Source: a bacterium
GTDB taxonomy: Bacteria; CAIWAD01
Length of the DNA: 64,000 bases
Direction: 5' to 3'
Assembly (NCBI GenBank): GCA_030429345.1
Contig: JAUIFJ010000008.1
Coordinates: forward strand, 88,728 to 152,727
In this document: positions 53,414 through 64,000 of the stretch, piece after piece
Layout of the letters: every line of letters begins with the position of its first letter
Position numbering within the stretch: the first letter of the stretch is position 1
Position numbers and translations under genes: made by a program
Notes under the pieces: generated by a model
Database searches by the model: none
What the model was told of the DNA's origin: nothing
Seen by the model: the letters and a program-made list of their open reading frames with translations, nothing else

Positions 53414-54154
53414 CTACCAGGCCGCGAGCTCCAGCGCTTCCTCCAGGCCGCATCCCGTCTGGAAGAGCGGACTCAGGCTGCCGCTTTCGGGATCGAGCCG
53501 GTAGAGGGTCGAGCTGCCGTCGCTGGCGTAGAACTCCCCCGTGATCCGCGAGGCGCAGACCGAGATCAGCGCCGGCAGCTGGGCCAGGTCCTGGAGAATC
53601 GGCGGATCCTGCCGCAGGTCGAGGCGGGCCAGCCAGCTCTGCCCCGCCGCCTGGCGCAGGACGAGCAGGTCCCAGGCGTCGACGTCTACGCCCAGGGGGG
53701 AACGGAAGGAGACCGGGCTGAAGAACAGGGAGGCGTAGAGTCCGCCGGGCAAGGTCCAGTCCCCCACCTGGGCCGCCGTCTCCGGATTCAGCCGCAGCAG
53801 CCTGCTGTTGTTGTCCAGCAGGTAGAGCCGCCCCAGGTCGTCGGCGGCCATGGACTGCGGCAGGCTGAGCGGATCCACGACGCCGACCGGGCTTTCGCCG
53901 TTGGCATAGGGCCGAATGCGCAGCAGTTCTCGTGTGACCTGGTCGACGGAGTAGAGTTCCCCGAAGGCGGCGGCGGCGAGCACCAGGCTGTTGCCGTTCA
54001 AATAGTCGAGCAGGTCGCAGTTCCGGGTCTCGGGATCCAGGCGCCTGAGCGCGCGTTCGGAGCTGTCGATGAACCAGAGCTCCAGCTGCTCTTCCTGGCG
54101 CTCGTCGTCGCAGGCCGTCAGCAGCAGGAGGGACAGGAGCACAAGGCGCAGCAT
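53414..54154 (-). CDS. Lipoprotein with propeller-like repeats
   Basis: A 246-residue lipoprotein; start at 54154 shares one base with the deoA stop (TGATG), and LRLVLLSLLLLTACDDE gives the lipobox LTAC. Repeated motifs LWFIDSSERALRRLDPET, LYSVDQVTRELLRIRP, LYLLDNNSRLLRLNPET and FYASDGSSTLYRLDPES look like NHL/YVTN-type propeller blades, but only five or so can be seen. It is the last gene of the deo operon. A role in sensing or binding a nucleoside-derived ligand is a guess from position only. Confidence 0.75.
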   Translation of the reverse strand: MLRLVLLSLLLLTACDDERQEEQLELWFIDSSERALRRLDPETRNCDLLDYLNGNSLVLAAAAFGELYSVDQVTRELLRIRPYANGESPVGVVDPLSLPQSMAADDLGRLYLLDNNSRLLRLNPETAAQVGDWTLPGGLYASLFFSPVSFRSPLGVDVDAWDLLVLRQAAGQSWLARLDLRQDPPILQDLAQLPALISVCASRITGEFYASDGSSTLYRLDPESGSLSPLFQTGCGLEEALELAAW

Positions 54155-55545
54155 CAGGGACGCCACAGGGGGTGCGGCTTCAAGCCGTCGCCGACATTGC
54201 GGTATACGCGCCGCCATTCGTCGGGATCAAAGGGCGCGCCAATGGCGCGGAGCAGCATCGGGCGGGGCCGGAAGTCCTCCTCCGCGCCCAGGGTGTAGGC
54301 CTCGCGGACGAGGGCCGCGGCCTCTTCCAGGCGGCCTTCGGGAGTCGAACAGTAGACATCGGCCAGGGCCTCGCCGGGGCGCAGGCTCTCGCCGGGCTTG
54401 CGATGCAGGCTGAGGCCGGCGAGGGCATCGATGGCATCTTCCCGCCGCTGCCGGCCGGCGCCCAGCAGCAGGGCCGCCTGCCCGATGGCCCGGGCGTCCA
54501 CGGCAAGCACGGTGCCGCCCTGGGCGTGTGTCACGGTCAGGCCGCGCGTCGGCCGGGGGGCGCGGTGCGGGAAGCGCAGGCGCTCCGTATTGCCACCCTG
54601 CAGTTCCAGCGCCTTCAGCAGAGCCTCGAAGGCCTTGCCGGAATGGATCACCTCCTGCTGCAGGCGGATCGCCTCTTCGAGGCTCGCGCAGCGACCGGCG
54701 GCCAGCAGGCCGGCGGCGCCCAGGGCGTAGACCACCTCCATCAGGTCGGCGGGGCCGTGGCCCTGCAGGCATTCGGCGCTTTCGACCAGCTCGTTCCAGT
54801 TGCCCACCTGCCGACCCAGGGGCGTGTCCATGTCGCTCAGCAGAGCGCAGGCCTTGCGTCCGCCGGCCGCGGTGATCGCCACCAGGGCCTCGGCCAGTTC
54901 GGCGGCCTGCTCTTCCGTGGCAAAGATCGCCCCGCTGCCGCACTTCACATCCAGCACCAGCTGGTCCAGGTCCTCGGCCAGTTTCTTGCTCAGAATGGAA
55001 GCGCAGATCAGCGGCACGCTTTCCACGGTGGCAGTCACATCGCGCAGGGCGTAGAAGATGCGATCGGCGGGCACCAGGTCCTGTGTCTGCCGCAGGATGC
55101 AGAGCCCGGTCTCGGCCAGCACCTTCTGCATGGCCTCCTGCTCCAGGCCCAGCTCGATGCCGGGCAGGCATTCCAGCTTGTCGACGGTGCCGCCGGTCAG
55201 GCCCAGGCCGCGGCCGGTGATCGTCGGCACCTGCAGCCCGCAGGCGGCCCAGACGGGAGCCAGCACGAAGGTCACCTTGTCGCCCACGCCTCCCGTGCTG
55301 TGCTTGTCTACACGCAGGCCCGAAAGCTCCCCGCGCTGCAGCACGCGCCCCGACTCGAGCATTTCGCGGGTCAGGGTCCAGGTCTCCTCCGGGTTCATGC
55401 CCTGGAAGTAGATCGCCATGAACCAGGCGCTCAGCTGGGCCGGCTCGACTCGCTCGGCCAGCGCGCCCTGGACCATGAAACGGATCTCTTCGGCGCTGTT
55501 GGCCTGGCCGCGCTGCTTTTTCTGGATGATCGAGAAGGCGGTCAC
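54154..55545 (-). CDS. deoA: Thymidine/pyrimidine-nucleoside phosphorylase
   Basis: A 463-residue phosphorylase producing deoxyribose 1-phosphate from thymidine or deoxyuridine. Start: GTG at 55545, overlapping the deoC stop by 4 bases. The signature [19 protein letters not shown] (residues about 78-96) is present, as are [17 protein letters not shown]-type ([18 protein letters not shown]), [20 protein letters not shown] and [12 protein letters not shown]. The C-terminal domain ([21 protein letters not shown]) is complete. It sits between DeoC and a lipoprotein, as part of a five-gene overlapping operon. Confidence 0.93.
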
Positions 55546-56450
55546 GGGCGGGATCCGACGATGGCCACGCTGGCCGACGCGCCCAGGCGGTCGGCGCCCG
55601 ATTCGACCATGCGCACCGCGTCCTCGAAGGTGCGCACGCCGCCGGAGGCCTTGACGCCCATGCCGGCGCCGACCACGCGGCGCATCAGGGCCACGTGCTC
55701 GGCCTTGGCACCCGCGCTGGAGAAGCCGGTGGAGGTCTTGACGAAATCCGCTCCTGCCCGGCGGCTGGCCAGGCTGGCGCGCACGATCTGTTCCTCGTCG
55801 AGCAGGCAGGTTTCCAGGATCACCTTGGTCAACACGCCGCGGCCGGCGCTTTCCACCACTCCGCGAATGTCCTCCTCGACCGCGCTCCAGTCGCCGCTCT
55901 TGGCCCAGCCGATGTTGATCACCATGTCGATTTCCGTGGCGCCGTCGCGCACGGCCTGGCGGGTCTCGGCGGCCTTGATCTTGGGGCTGGAGGCGCCCAG
56001 GGGAAAACCGACCACCGTGCAGGCCCGCACCGGCGAGCCCTGCAGCTCGCGGCTGGCCAGGGGAATCCAGCAGGGATTGACGCACACGCTGGCGAAACTG
56101 TGCTCGCGGGCCTCGCGGCAGAGACGCAGCACGGCGTTCTTGTCGGCGTCGGCCTTGAGCAGGGTATGATCGATCAGGCGGCTGAGTTCGCCGCGCACGC
56201 GGTCGATCAGGCCCAGGGTACAGCTGATGCGGTCGGCGCCGCAGGCCAGGGCATTGTCGGGGGAATAGCTGCCGCACTCGGAGGCGGGAGTCGTTCCGGG
56301 GCGGGCCCAGCTGGCGGCGCCGGCGGCTTGCATGGATCCGCTCGCCGAGAGGCCGCCTCCGGGAGTCGCGCCGTCCGGGGCCGGGGCGCTCGAGCTCTTC
56401 TCGCCGAGCATCTCGTTGATGATGTCTTCCAGTCGGTCACGCGAAGTCAT
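55542..56450 (-). CDS. deoC: Deoxyribose-phosphate aldolase with N-terminal encapsulation-type helix
   Basis: A 302-residue DeoC cleaving deoxyribose 5-phosphate to acetaldehyde and glyceraldehyde 3-phosphate. Core motifs: [28 protein letters not shown] (Asp), FVKTSTGFS (Schiff-base Lys) and [10 protein letters not shown]. About 85 residues precede the core. The first 17, [17 protein letters not shown], make an amphipathic helix, then a Ser/Ala/Pro/Gly-rich linker - the layout of encapsulation peptides that take enzymes into bacterial microcompartments. E. coli-type DeoC lacks this. Directly upstream, overlapping by 4 bases, is a microcompartment vertex protein gene. Confidence 0.9.
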
Positions 56451-56740
56451 GGGGTGTCCTTGTGCCTCGTTTCCGGCAGATGCCAGTCGTCGACCACGGC
56501 GACGATCAGCGCCTGCAGCGGAATGCGGGAATTGTCGAGGGCCAGGCGCGTGCCGCCGCCCTCCTTGTTGACGAGCACCGGATCGCCGATGCCCGCGTCC
56601 ACTGTGTCCACGGCAATGAACTCCTCGCCCTGCACCTCGCCGTCCAGGGTCAGGGGGCGCAGCAGCAGCAGCTTGTGTCCCTTGAACTCGGCGTTCTTGA
56701 CGGTGCTGACGACCTCGCCTGTGACACGCGCCAGGATCAC
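56447..56740 (-). CDS. EutN/CcmL-family microcompartment vertex protein
   Basis: A 97-residue single-domain EutN/CcmL protein, the pentamer that caps the vertices of microcompartment shells. [16 protein letters not shown] at the N-terminus, [42 protein letters not shown] and AIVAVVDDW-like ([10 protein letters not shown]) are the family's strands in order. It overlaps the mutase stop and the deoC start by 4 bases each. No hexameric shell protein gene is in the window, so it would have to be elsewhere. Confidence 0.88.
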
Positions 56741-58089
56741 GCCGGGACCAGCTGCTGGCGGATTTCCGCCACCAGGGCGGCAGCCTTCTGCGGATCGGCG
56801 GCTTCCGAGAAGATGCGCAGGATCGGTTCCGTATTGGAAGCGCGCACCTGGACCCAGCTGCGGCCGTCCTCGTCAAGGATCTTCAATCCGTCGGTCTCGT
56901 CCAGCTTCCGCCCGGCGAAGGCCTGGCGGATGCCGGCGACAGCCTCGGCGCCGTCGCGCTCGCCCAGCTCGATCTTCTCCTTGACCATGTGGTAGCTCGG
57001 CAGCTCCTCGCGCAGCAGGCGGACGCCGCTGCCCGCTTCCAGCATGTACTGCAGGATCAGCGCCATGCCGACCGGCGCGTCGCGGCCCAGGTGCAGGTCG
57101 GGCAGGATCACGCCGCCATTGCCCTCGCCGCCGATCACGGCGCCGATCTCGCGCATGCGCAGGCTGACATTGATCTCGCCGACGCGGGTCCGCTCGAGCG
57201 GCACGCCGGCTTCCTCGCAGACATCGTCCAGGATCGAGCTGGAGCTGACATTGGCCACCACGGGCCCCTTCTTGTGCCGCAGCAGGAAGCGCGCGCACAG
57301 GGCCAGGGTCTGCTCCTCGCCCAGCGCCACGCCCTTGCTGTCGACCAGCGCCAGGCGGTCGGCGTCGGGATCCACGGCAATGCCCAGGTCGAAACCGCCT
57401 TCGGCCACCGTGCGGCTCAGTTCGGTCAGGTTCTCCGGAGTCGGCTCGGCCTCGCGGAAGAAGTGGCCGCTTGAATCACAGCCGATCTTGACCACGTCGC
57501 AGCCCAGCTCCTGCAACAGGTGCGGGACCATGCAGCTGCCGGCGCCGTTGACGCAGTCCAGGGCCACGCGGTAGTTCCGCTTGCGCAGGGAGGGCACCTC
57601 GATCAGGTCCAGGGCCTTGATGCGTTCCACGTGGATGTCGCCCGCGTCCTCGCGGCTGCTCAGGGTTCCCAGCTTCTCCCAGCCGCAGTAGGCCGGTCCC
57701 TGCTCGGCCAGCTCCAGGTGGCGGGCCGCCTGCTCGGGCCCCAGGAAGAGGCCGTCGGAATGGAAGAACTTGAGCGCGTTCCACTGGATCGGGTTGTGGC
57801 TGGCGGTGATGCAGATGCCGCCGGCGGCCCCGCATTCCTCGACCATGATCGCCACCGTCGGAGTGGGCACGACGCCGATATCGATGATCTCGCAGCCCGT
57901 AGCCATCAGGCCGGAGATCACGGCGTGCCGCATGGTCTCGCCGCTGGGCCGGGTGTCGCGGCCGAGCACGACGGCTCCTCCGCCGCAGTAGTTGCCGAAG
58001 GCGGCGGCGTAGCGGGCCACGCTCTCCGGGTCGAGGCCGGCGCCCACGATGCCGCGGATGCCGGAAATGGATTTCATCAGTCGGCTCAT
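56737..58089 (-). CDS. Alpha-D-phosphohexomutase family enzyme (possible phosphopentomutase)
   Basis: A 450-residue phosphomutase. Start at 58089 ([12 protein letters not shown]) follows GGAAAGGAAGG. Motifs: [17 protein letters not shown], the phosphoserine loop [14 protein letters not shown] near residue 100, the metal loop [11 protein letters not shown] near 235, [11 protein letters not shown] near 325 and [12 protein letters not shown] near 420. Families with these motifs act on glucose, mannose or glucosamine phosphates; an archaeal member is known to be a phosphopentomutase. Since it lies in one overlapping operon with deoA and deoC and no DeoB is seen, conversion of deoxyribose 1-phosphate to 5-phosphate is a reasonable inference. 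Confidence 0.88.
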
Positions 58090-61680: not shown

Positions 61681-63342
61681 TTACAGCCCGCCGAGCTGGC
61701 TGCTCAGAAAATTGCCTTGTGACTGATAACTGCTGATCGCCATCTCCATGGCGATGAATTCCCGTTCGTACTTGGCGCGGATCTGCTCCAGGCGGTCTTC
61801 CTGGTCCTCGATGGCGCTCTGCAGGCGCTCGATGGACTCCTCCAGCGCGCCGGTCTGGTACTGCAGCGAGCCTGTATCACTGTTGGTGATGCTCTCCAGC
61901 CGCTTGAGGAAGCTGCCGCTGATGCCCTGCGAGAGGTTGATCGTGGCGTTGACCGTGCCGCCGCCGTCGTCGGGGTCGTTGAAAAGCAGCCGCAGGCCGC
62001 GGAAATCGCTGTCCTCCGGCGCGAGGACGAAGTTGTTGTCGATGACGGCGCTCTCGCCGTTGATTGTCGCCGAGCTGATGCTGCCGTCGACGCCGTAGGT
62101 CACGCTGACCTCGACGCTGCCACCGTCCGTATACTCTTCGCTCTCGAAATACTGGATCACGTTGCTTGTGCTGGAGGTGGTGAAGGCGAAGAGTTCGCCC
62201 ACGTCCTCGAAATTGTCCTCCAGCGCCGCTTCCAGCTTCTCCTCGTCGATGGCGATCATGCCCTTGTCGCCGGTCTTGAGGCCGATCTCGCCCATGCTGC
62301 TGTAGGCGTTGCCGTCCGGAATGCCCGCCAGCGTGCGGTTGGTGAGATTCTGCAGATTGCGCCGCATCTGCTGCATGGCCGCGCTGCCGAAGAGCAGGCC
62401 GCGGGTCTCGGTCTCGGCATTGTAGGCGCCCAGCTCGTCGATCTTCTCCATGATCGCGTTGTAGCTGCCGACAAAGCCGACGATCTTCTGTCTCACGGTC
62501 GCCTCGTCCTGGTTGACCGTGACTTCGACCGGCGTTCCCGCGGTCAGGGTCTTCAGGGTGAAGCTGACGCCTTCCACCACGTTCTCGACCGTGTTGGACT
62601 GGCTTTCGATCCAGTCGGCCGTGGGGTAGCCGTTGACGCGGATACGGGCGTTGACGCCGACGGAACCGTCGGGAAAGGCGGCGCTGTCGAAGCTGCTGCC
62701 GTCTCCCAGGGTCGTCGCGCCGTCGTCGATGGCGATCGCGGTTTCGCTGCCCGTGTCATCGCTGGTCAGGACCAGGTGATACGCCGTCGCGCTGCCGCTG
62801 CCGTCATTGATGATGCTGGCCCGTATACCGGGATTGTTCGCGTCGCGGTTGATCAGGTCCTTCAGTTCGGAAAGAGTGCTTCCGTCCGCCACGTCGATGG
62901 AAACGGTCTCCATCTCCGCGCCGACGCCATAGGTGTATACGAACTGCTGGCTCGATCCGCTGGAGTTGACAGCCGTCGTGTTCAGGTCGGCAAAGCCCGA
63001 GTGGATCAGGTTGCTGGCGGTGGCCAGCTGATCCACCTCGATGGAATAGCTGCCGGTCACGGCGTCCGTGTCCGCGTTGGCAGCGACCACATCGCTGTCG
63101 GAACTGCTTGCCGCCTTGGTCAGGAAGCTGTCCAGGTCCGAGAAGCTGCGCAGCTGTTGCTGCAGCGAGCCGAAGCGATCGGAGAGATCGTTCCAGGCCG
63201 CCACCTGTTCCCGGGTGCTCTCCTGGTTCTGCTCCAGCGTCGTCACGCGCTGGCGCTCGATCTGCATCAGGCTGTCCACCGTGGAACGCCAGTCGATGCC
63301 CGAGCTGACTCCGCTGATCGCGGTGGATGTGGCACTAGACAT
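61681..63342 (-). CDS. fliD: Flagellar hook-associated protein 2, filament cap FliD
   Basis: A 553-residue cap protein. ISGVSSGIDWRSTVDSLMQI is the conserved N-terminus, FliD_N continues to ATASNLIHSGF near residue 110, and FliD_C occupies residues about 270-545 (VRQKIVGFVGSYNAIMEKID; GLLFGSAAMQQMRRNLQNL). The C-terminal coiled coil (LEESIERLQSAIEDQEDRLE) ends with FIAMEMAISSYQSQGNFLSS. Ribosome site GAGGAGATGCTGA. The ordered domains and length are normal. It leads a fliD-fliS unit, possibly under sigma-54. Confidence 0.95.
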   Translation of the reverse strand: MSSATSTAISGVSSGIDWRSTVDSLMQIERQRVTTLEQNQESTREQVAAWNDLSDRFGSLQQQLRSFSDLDSFLTKAASSSDSDVVAANADTDAVTGSYSIEVDQLATASNLIHSGFADLNTTAVNSSGSSQQFVYTYGVGAEMETVSIDVADGSTLSELKDLINRDANNPGIRASIINDGSGSATAYHLVLTSDDTGSETAIAIDDGATTLGDGSSFDSAAFPDGSVGVNARIRVNGYPTADWIESQSNTVENVVEGVSFTLKTLTAGTPVEVTVNQDEATVRQKIVGFVGSYNAIMEKIDELGAYNAETETRGLLFGSAAMQQMRRNLQNLTNRTLAGIPDGNAYSSMGEIGLKTGDKGMIAIDEEKLEAALEDNFEDVGELFAFTTSSTSNVIQYFESEEYTDGGSVEVSVTYGVDGSISSATINGESAVIDNNFVLAPEDSDFRGLRLLFNDPDDGGGTVNATINLSQGISGSFLKRLESITNSDTGSLQYQTGALEESIERLQSAIEDQEDRLEQIRAKYEREFIAMEMAISSYQSQGNFLSSQLGGL

Positions 63343-63495
63343 TCAGCATCTCCTCTTGACCTGCCCCGGGGAAAGCAAGGACCGTGACAGTTGGCCCGGA
63401 CCGGGAAGGGCATTCCCTTCTTAGCTGTTTTTCAATCACTTGGCGCAATGTGCGATGAACGCCTGCGACGATTTTCCAGACCGGATGGGGCAAGC

Positions 63496-63513
63496 CCTGC
63501 AAGCAGGATTCCG
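63496..63513 (-). promoter_or_regulatory. Possible sigma-54 promoter for fliD
   Basis: On the minus strand CGGAATCCTGCTTGCA has GG (63511-63512) exactly 10 bases from GC (63499-63500), with TTGCA matching the -12 element; the -24 element matches only at GG. Position is about 155 bases upstream of fliD. Confidence 0.35.
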
Positions 63514-63539
63514 CCTGCTGGCAATTTCTTCCCGCTCTC

Positions 63540-63719
63540 TCAGGCGATGATGTCAAGGCGGTTTTCGTCTCGAGGAGGATGCGGAACCTCTTTCCGCTCA
63601 TCCTTTTCCTCTGCCGCCTCGTTCTCCCTGACCCTGACTTTCGCTTTAAGGGATGGGCGTCCGCGCTTTCCTTGCCAGCGCTCCGACGGAGCCGGCGCCG
63701 GTGGTTGGATCTGTTCCAT
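63540..63719 (-). CDS. Small hypothetical protein upstream of fliD
   Basis: A 59-residue frame starting MEQIQPPAP and ending RDENRLDIIA, highly charged in the middle (KAKVRVRENEAAEEKDERKE). It lies upstream of fliD, where small flagellar genes such as flaG often sit, but no FlaG pattern is seen. The ribosome site is a run of G only. Could be spurious. Confidence 0.25.
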   Translation of the reverse strand: MEQIQPPAPAPSERWQGKRGRPSLKAKVRVRENEAAEEKDERKEVPHPPRDENRLDIIA

Positions 63720-63881
63720 GGGGCCCCCAGTGTGCCGGACCGGAGTTTCCCCACCGGTCCAGGTCCCGGAATCGGCGGATTCGGGAAAAACTGGAGCGAA
63801 AGCCGCCAGGGAAGTGCGCATGCAAAACGAAACGGGAGAAATCTGCCGGTGAAAGTTGATGGGAACGGGGGAAGGTCAAGA

Positions 63882-64000
63882 GGTGTCAGGGACGGTGCCA
63901 AGGACGGTGCCAGGGACGGTGCCAGGGACGGTGCCAGGGACGGTGCCAAGGACGGTGCCAAGGACCGTGCCAGGCACGGTGCCAGGGACGGTGCCAGGGA
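63882..64000. repeat. Second 12-bp tandem repeat array (runs off the window)
   Basis: From GGTGTCAGGGACGGTGCC onwards, about ten copies of the CGGTGCCAGGGA unit with the same AGGA and GGCA variants as the array at 43249-43680. The array continues past the right edge. Confidence 0.93.

What the first reader, a model, noticed from the sequence alone, without database searches (positions are those of the whole stretch)
53414..58089. Five-gene overlapping operon linking a microcompartment vertex protein to deoxyribonucleoside catabolism
Phosphomutase, EutN/CcmL protein, DeoC, DeoA and a lipoprotein follow one another with 1- or 4-base overlaps at every junction. DeoA gives deoxyribose 1-phosphate, a mutase is needed to make the 5-phosphate, and DeoC cleaves it to acetaldehyde, the kind of volatile aldehyde microcompartments enclose. 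DeoC carries an extra N-terminal amphipathic helix and flexible linker of the encapsulation-peptide type. No hexameric shell protein or aldehyde dehydrogenase is nearby, so this is either a satellite locus of a shell encoded elsewhere or a reduced system. Microcompartments with DeoC are known in Planctomycetes and related phyla; this gene set with DeoA and a phosphohexomutase looks distinct.
Basis: partly seen in the sequence, partly recalled or inferred. Interest (0 to 1): 0.85.

Follow-up and report, generated by a model that had tools for sequence, protein, structure and literature searches.

The report
DNA-sugar microcompartment scattered across genome
This operon is one of about six scattered pieces of a bacterial protein organelle that appears to break down the sugar of DNA building blocks, and the same scattered set in related bacteria suggests what a class of organelles of unknown function does.

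Summary
The operon is real. GlmM-type mutase, EutN/CcmL vertex protein (BMC-P), DeoC, DeoA and a lipoprotein overlap by 4, 4, 4 and 1 bases. It is a satellite locus of a dispersed microcompartment. The same genome carries two BMC-H genes; PduS-like + PduT-like BMC-T; DeoB + two BMC-P; a fourth BMC-P; and acetaldehyde dehydrogenase + PduL, each group on another contig. The genome's only DeoC match carries an N-terminal helix and disordered linker. A profile of that extension trained on other lineages hits 8 of 12 shell-bearing genomes with DeoC and 0 of 18 shell-less ones. The dehydrogenase ends in a conserved helix of encapsulation-peptide type. DeoB sits within 1.3 kb of a BMC-P pair in 12 of 16 shell-bearing genomes where DeoB passed its cut-off. 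Best reading: DeoA and DeoB make deoxyribose 5-phosphate outside the shell; DeoC, the dehydrogenase and probably PduL consume it inside. It resembles known SPU and HO compartments but has the dispersed layout of 'FRAG' compartments, which lack a known signature enzyme; their function becomes testable. No wet-lab evidence.

The parts
56737..58089 (-). phosphohexomutase of the archaeal-type GlmM family, first gene of the overlapping run; most likely housekeeping GlmM
   Evidence: TIGR03990 509.8 bits over cut-off 439; mutase-BMC-P adjacency in many records titled Ignavibacteria, Bacteroidota, KSB1, Calditrichota; only phosphohexomutase of this genome above the GlmM cut-off
56447..56740 (-). BMC-P vertex protein (EutN/CcmL), GTG start, 97 aa; third member of a BMC-P triplet whose other two lie on contig C88
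   Evidence: PF03319 84 bits; own group in the BMC-P tree
55542..56450 (-). DeoC deoxyribose-phosphate aldolase with an 87-residue N-terminal extension; the only DeoC match in the genome
   Evidence: TIGR00126 276 bits; single match; core aligned to solved DeoCs from residue 88, with the aldolase lysines in VKTSTGF and VKASGG
56409..56444 (-). putative encapsulation peptide of DeoC: helix, residues 3-14 ([12 protein letters not shown])
   Evidence: AlphaFold model helix 3-14, pLDDT about 67; conserved in position and pattern; extension profile tracks shell presence
56271..56405 (-). flexible linker of DeoC, residues 16-60
   Evidence: pLDDT below 50 throughout
56211..56270 (-). second conserved element of the DeoC extension, residues 61-80, with invariant G71-A72-x-R74
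   Evidence: invariant in all 22 aligned BMC-linked DeoCs; function unknown
54154..55545 (-). DeoA, thymidine/pyrimidine-nucleoside phosphorylase, GTG start
   Evidence: NF004490 459 bits over cut-off 269; TIGR02644 471.7 over 409; also downstream of DeoC in L051, L110, L114
53414..54154 (-). lipoprotein of unknown family, last gene of the run
   Evidence: signal LLLLTAC in translation; no Pfam or NCBIfam match; 29% identical counterpart in L051
58164..58484 (-). DUF1844 protein, conserved upstream neighbour; probably same operon, function in the compartment unknown
   Evidence: PF08899; same order in L050-L052
58465..59307 (-). HisKA-like protein, conserved upstream neighbour
   Evidence: weak PF00512, below cut-off; same order in L050-L052
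59304..59870 (-). bifunctional-nuclease-domain protein, conserved upstream neighbour
   Evidence: PF02577; same order in L050-L052

Best explanation
The operon is a satellite locus of a dispersed bacterial microcompartment that catabolises deoxyribonucleosides. Inferred mechanism: DeoA, and DeoB from a second satellite locus, act in the cytosol and turn pyrimidine deoxynucleosides into deoxyribose 1-phosphate and then deoxyribose 5-phosphate. The sugar phosphate enters the shell, which is built of two BMC-H, one PduT-like BMC-T and a triplet of BMC-P plus a fourth. [quoted passage not shown] An acetaldehyde dehydrogenase held by a C-terminal helix turns acetaldehyde into acetyl-CoA, and PduL turns that into acetyl-phosphate and recycles CoA. 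The PduS/PduT-like pair may handle electrons. Shown by sequence: the gene set, its dispersal, the conserved extensions and the conserved linkages. Inferred: assembly, encapsulation, flux, and which steps lie inside. The adjacent phosphohexomutase is most likely the housekeeping GlmM.
For: Shell genes in the same genome: 4 BMC-domain and 4 BMC-P matches on five contigs including this one. DeoB directly beside two BMC-P. AldDH best matched by acetaldehyde dehydrogenase (acetylating), 612.8 bits, just under its cut-off of 620.1, overlapping PduL. Same genes and linkages in three same-family genomes. DeoB within 1.3 kb of a BMC-P pair in 12 of 16 shell-bearing genomes with DeoB above cut-off; about 0.3-0.5% expected per genome. 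DeoC extension profile: 8 of 12 shell-bearing versus 0 of 18 shell-less genomes. AldDH C-terminal helix in 15 of 15 relatives with a complete C-terminus. Model: helix, disordered linker, ordered barrel. DeoC compartments for DNA-derived sugar were already proposed (PMC8217296).
Against: No experiment. The helix is short, predicted with modest confidence, and its hydrophobic moment is ordinary (76th-82nd percentile of stretches from the same proteins). Three shell-bearing genomes with a DeoC lack the extension and a fourth is below threshold, so DeoC is not the cargo everywhere. Two shell-bearing genomes of the second set have no DeoC match. AldDH falls just short of its model's cut-off. Genomes are draft assemblies and related, so counts are not independent events.
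Confidence: 0.78

Rival explanations
1. It is simply a known DeoC compartment (SPU or Haliangium-type HO) whose locus has been broken up; nothing is new beyond gene order.
For: [quoted passage not shown] The same DeoC extension occurs in Anaerolineae loci with DeoC, BMC-P, AldDH and BMC-H together and in Acidobacteriota loci with three BMC-P and DeoC.
Against: Shell genes lie in four other places with no locus holding both BMC-H and BMC-P; the dispersed layout and the DeoB-BMC-P and mutase-BMC-P pairs are shared by Ignavibacteria-, Bacteroidota-, KSB1- and Calditrichota-titled genomes, so this is a stable arrangement rather than a recent break. RpiB, shared by SPU loci, is not among the genes named in the operon and was not searched genome-wide.
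Confidence: 0.3
2. The operon's phosphohexomutase is the deoxyribose 1-phosphate mutase of the pathway, like PPMTk of Thermococcus kodakarensis.
For: PPMTk is a pentose-specific member of the same family (PMC11641776); the window enzyme has two glutamates about where PPMTk's docked pentose contacts lie, where hexose mutases have Gly-Asp (read by eye from the alignment). G061 keeps the operon but shows no DeoB above cut-off.
Against: True DeoB in the genome beside BMC-P. 185.8 bits to PPMTk (9ix8) versus 300.5 to an archaeal PGM/PMM. Hexose loop GGEGNGG kept, lost in PPMTk. Only enzyme of this genome above the GlmM cut-off, and the only phosphohexomutase found in G064, which has DeoB too.
Confidence: 0.12
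3. The linkage is chance or a relic: vertex genes lodged beside housekeeping genes, with no working compartment for deoxyribose.
For: Shell genes are scattered and one of the neighbours is a housekeeping enzyme; in some relatives the BMC-P pair lies beside an rpoD-like sigma factor gene.
Against: All four genomes of the family keep the same number of shell-domain matches and the extensions on DeoC and AldDH, which is not what decay looks like; the DeoB linkage recurs far above chance.
Confidence: 0.05

Closest known systems
FRAG microcompartments (Sutter et al. 2021, PMC8217296)
   Same: Shell genes in several separate places, BMC-P triplet, occurrence in Ignavibacteriae and candidate phyla, AldDH present in some
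   Different: FRAG types were described without an obvious aldehyde-producing enzyme; here DeoC with a targeting-type extension, DeoB and DeoA are tied to the shell genes. Formal assignment with the published HMMs not done
SPU (sugar phosphate utilization) microcompartments (Axen 2014 PMC4207490; Sutter 2021)
   Same: DeoC aldolase and an acetaldehyde-type AldDH; proposed use of DNA breakdown products
   Different: SPU loci are contiguous and share RpiB; here genes are dispersed, no RpiB was seen beside the shell genes, and DeoA/DeoB are linked instead
HO (Haliangium ochraceum type) microcompartments (Sutter 2021)
   Same: BMC-P triplet; remote DeoC with EP-like N-terminus in some genomes; satellite loci with two BMC-P and an aldolase
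   Different: HO has a main shell locus; none was found here
Family 4B A-domain encapsulin DeoC systems (PMC8346489)
   Same: A compartment-type shell protein associated with DeoC and deoxynucleoside use
   Different: HK97-type shell in hyperthermophilic archaea, unrelated to BMC shell proteins

Membership tests
Bacterial microcompartment (metabolosome) | BMC-H, BMC-T and BMC-P shell proteins in the genome | tested here: met
   PF00936 and PF03319 searches, all over cut-off; families of each gene
Bacterial microcompartment (metabolosome) | Aldehyde-producing enzyme, acylating aldehyde dehydrogenase and phosphotransacylase | tested here: met
   DeoC; AldDH nearest acetaldehyde dehydrogenase (acetylating), 612.8 against cut-off 620.1; PduL PF06130 over cut-off
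Bacterial microcompartment (metabolosome) | Encapsulation peptides on cargo that bind the shell | tested here: inconclusive
   Helix-plus-linker extensions are present and conserved; binding cannot be tested here
FRAG type | Shell genes in several separate genomic places, no main locus with BMC-H and BMC-P together | tested here: met
   C35, C87, C88, C11, C28; draft assembly, BMC-T lies about 270 bases from a contig end
FRAG type | BMC-P triplet | tested here: met
   C88a, C88b and window BMC-P fall in separate groups of a 239-row tree; quick tree, many unresolved forks
FRAG type | Shell proteins assigned to FRAG by the published type HMMs | not testable with these tools
   HMM library and supplementary data not available
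SPU type | DeoC-type aldolase (PF01791) | tested here: met
SPU type | RpiB (PF02502) with the shell genes | not tested
   Not searched as a family in this genome; none among the operon genes named
HO type | Main locus with BMC-H and BMC-P together | tested here: not met
   No fetched locus of this genome holds both
DeoB phosphopentomutase (C88 gene) | Above the equivalog cut-off | tested here: met
   TIGR01696 417.6 over 341.2; NF003766 489.3 over 256
PPMTk-like phosphopentomutase (window mutase) | Closer to PPMTk than to hexose mutases, with an altered hexose loop | tested here: not met
   185.8 bits to PPMTk against 300.5 to an archaeal PGM/PMM; loop GGEGNGG kept

The most novel reading that the evidence does not exclude
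The dispersed, FRAG-like microcompartments of Ignavibacteria, Bacteroidota, KSB1, Calditrichota and this lineage are one shared, largely vertically inherited organelle for consuming deoxyribonucleosides from DNA, with extended DeoC as signature enzyme and the phosphopentomutase DeoB and phosphorylase DeoA genetically tied to vertex-protein genes instead of to a single locus.
Probability: 0.55. Interest if true: 0.72.

Novelty: new variant of a known kind. Interest (0 to 1): 0.62.

Why it matters
The 2021 microcompartment catalogue left FRAG types without an aldehyde-producing enzyme and called them enigmatic (PMC8217296). Here DeoC with a targeting-type extension, DeoB and DeoA, all tied to vertex-protein genes in this genome, supply one for a dispersed set that recurs across phyla. 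That gives direct predictions: growth on thymidine or DNA, DeoC and AldDH inside the shell, DeoA and DeoB outside. It also shows that a compartment can be recovered from scattered satellite loci by following the pathway rather than the locus.

Tried and rejected
A wide BMC-P alignment was too variable for a collection scan; a narrower one worked. Hydrophobic moment as evidence for targeting helices: ordinary values, not used. Phosphohexomutase as phosphopentomutase: considered seriously because of PPMTk, judged unlikely. Sorting mutases by short motif patterns gave patchy matches and was not used for counts. Literature: in the held open-access library no paper holds both 'microcompartment' and 'thymidine phosphorylase'; two hold 'microcompartment' and 'phosphopentomutase': an encapsulin survey, read in passages, and a manganese-depletion transcriptome of Streptococcus, judged by title and abstract start only. 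No paper holds 'microcompartment', 'Ignavibacteria' and 'FRAG' together as whole words. Supplementary tables of the catalogue could not be read, so whether its FRAG entries list DeoC or DeoB neighbours is unknown. The phylum of the window was not settled: its relatives bear no useful names.
Full report
Observation. Curated models identify an archaeal-type GlmM-family phosphohexomutase, a EutN/CcmL vertex protein, deoxyribose-phosphate aldolase and thymidine/pyrimidine-nucleoside phosphorylase; the lipoprotein has no family. DeoC's catalytic domain starts at about residue 88; solved DeoCs align only from about there.

The rest of the compartment. The genome (4.24 Mb, 92 contigs, 98% complete) has them: two BMC-H genes on C35 (9029-9310 and 8467-8955), one tandem-domain BMC-T on C87 (47416-48003), two BMC-P on C88 (6598-6876 and 6338-6604), one BMC-P on C11 (65633-65947), plus the window's BMC-P. 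Enzymes lie beside them: a PduS/RnfC-like protein directly before the BMC-T, which itself best matches the PduT model, below its cut-off, and a phosphopentomutase DeoB directly before the BMC-P pair (TIGR01696 417 bits, cut-off 341; NF003766 489, cut-off 256). On C75 an aldehyde dehydrogenase (223140-224669), whose best model is acetaldehyde dehydrogenase (acetylating) at 612.8 bits (cut-off 620.1), overlaps a PduL phosphotransacylase gene by 4 bases. The search with the window's DeoC found a single match in the genome.

Conservation in the family. Three other genomes of the family keep the same counts of shell-domain matches, the block BFN-HisKA-DUF1844-mutase-BMC-P-DeoC (DeoA and lipoprotein where the contig continues), DeoB within 1.3 kb of the BMC-P pair and AldDH-PduL.

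Conservation beyond the family. A scan of named genomes with this BMC-P found mutase-BMC-P-DeoC-DeoA in records titled Calditrichota and KSB1, and mutase-BMC-P alone in many records titled Ignavibacteria, Ignavibacteriales, Bacteroidota or Bacteroidetes. In whole-genome searches of thirteen of those genomes DeoB passed its cut-off in eight, and in all eight it lies 44-854 bases from the BMC-P pair (G060, G062, G063, G064, G066, G067, G069, G072). With the window's family that is 12 of the 16 genomes with DeoB above cut-off; the exceptions are G016 (DeoB about 2 kb from a BMC-H), G022, G029 and G033. The chance per genome is about 0.3-0.5%; because the genomes are related the joint probability should not be taken literally. 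The thirteen genomes were picked for a mutase-BMC-P pair, not for DeoB, so the DeoB linkage is not built into the selection. A record titled Kiritimatiellae shows BMC-P, AldDH, two BMC-P and DeoB in a row. Twelve of the thirteen have a DeoC with an N-terminal extension; G071 showed no DeoC.

Targeting. All BMC-linked DeoCs in the 22-row alignment share a short N-terminal segment, a variable linker and a second short element with invariant Gly-Ala-x-Arg before the aldolase core (further examples). The predicted structure of the window DeoC shows helix 3-14, disorder 16-60 and an ordered barrel (mean pLDDT 81.7). A profile of the extension trained on other lineages and applied to the 30 DeoC loci retrieved from the 60-genome sample recovers 8 of 12 from shell-bearing genomes and 0 of 18 from shell-less ones (Fisher p = 8e-5). 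Three further DeoC matches of that sample were not retrieved as loci and not tested. The AldDH ends in a helix of the form LSDEDIDRIVKEFK after a flexible linker in all 15 relatives with a complete C-terminus. The amphipathic moment alone is unremarkable, so the argument is conservation and co-occurrence; binding was not tested.

The mutase. There is a real precedent, PPMTk of Thermococcus kodakarensis, a pentose-specific member of this family (PMC11641776), and the window enzyme has glutamates about where PPMTk's docked pentose contacts lie (read by eye). But a true DeoB is present, the window enzyme keeps the hexose loop GGEGNGG and is much closer to archaeal hexose mutases than to PPMTk, it is the only phosphohexomutase in the genome above the GlmM cut-off, and the BMC-P-linked mutase is the only phosphohexomutase found in G064, which has DeoB as well. 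I judge it housekeeping GlmM whose neighbourhood hosts a vertex gene. G061, with the same operon and no DeoB above cut-off, is the counter-case to watch; it may be incomplete.

Mechanism (inferred). DeoA and DeoB show no such extension in their translations and probably act outside. Deoxyribose 5-phosphate enters the shell; DeoC and AldDH, both with terminal helices, and probably PduL handle the acetaldehyde step inside; acetyl-phosphate and glyceraldehyde 3-phosphate leave. The PduS/PduT-like pair may regenerate cofactor; this is by analogy with PDU systems (own knowledge) and untested.

Comparison with known systems. DeoC compartments are known: SPU, sharing DeoC and RpiB and proposed to consume DNA products, and HO, with a BMC-P triplet and in some genomes a remote DeoC bearing an EP-like N-terminus (PMC8217296, PMC4207490). 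FRAG types have shell genes in up to six places, a BMC-P triplet, occurrence in Ignavibacteriae and candidate phyla, and no obvious signature enzyme. The layout here is FRAG-like: no fetched locus of this genome has both BMC-H and BMC-P, and the three triplet members fall in separate groups of a BMC-P tree. Formal FRAG or SPU membership was not settled, because the published HMMs and supplements were not available and RpiB was not searched genome-wide. What I could not find in the held literature is DeoB or DeoA linked to a vertex gene. So: a new variant of a known kind, with a plausible function for a type that lacked one.

Noticed in passing
window 56211-56275 (DeoC residues about 59-80); L280-L291, L122, L126, L158: Between the putative targeting helix and the aldolase core, many BMC-linked DeoCs carry a Cys-rich stretch (e.g. 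CCKDGVCTDGLCVIHNK, CEYQCADNVCVHTCFD) and an invariant Gly-Ala-x-Arg; the window's family keeps the latter but few cysteines. Metal or redox role unknown.
   Followed up: partly
L219, L222, L224, L225, L227 (between DeoB and the BMC-P pair): Five genomes have two overlapping or adjacent small genes (about 100 and 140 aa) inserted between DeoB and the BMC-P pair; by eye they resemble an AbrB-like/PIN-like pair, but one pair tested had no Pfam match.
   Followed up: partly
L229, L230, L233 (G001-G003): A deoxyhypusine-synthase-family gene (PF01916) lies between DeoB and the BMC-P pair in the three same-family genomes but not in the window's genome.
   Followed up: partly
L252, L253, L254, L268: The BMC-P pair lies just upstream of an rpoD-like sigma factor gene (by eye, from the translation) in several relatives.
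   Followed up: no
L012:9634-11817; L064, L074: A fourth BMC-P, long-branched in the tree, is followed by an ACT-domain gene and a DUF711 gene, also in G003 and G004; role in the compartment unknown.
   Followed up: partly
L009:8467-8955: The second BMC-H of this genome has about 80 extra residues after the BMC domain, without a Pfam match.
   Followed up: no
window 63335-63961; L009 start; L010:3281-3652; L205:1183-1430: Simple-sequence tracts coding for repeats such as APSL, DGARHGA and HRPW recur at several places in this genome.
   Followed up: no
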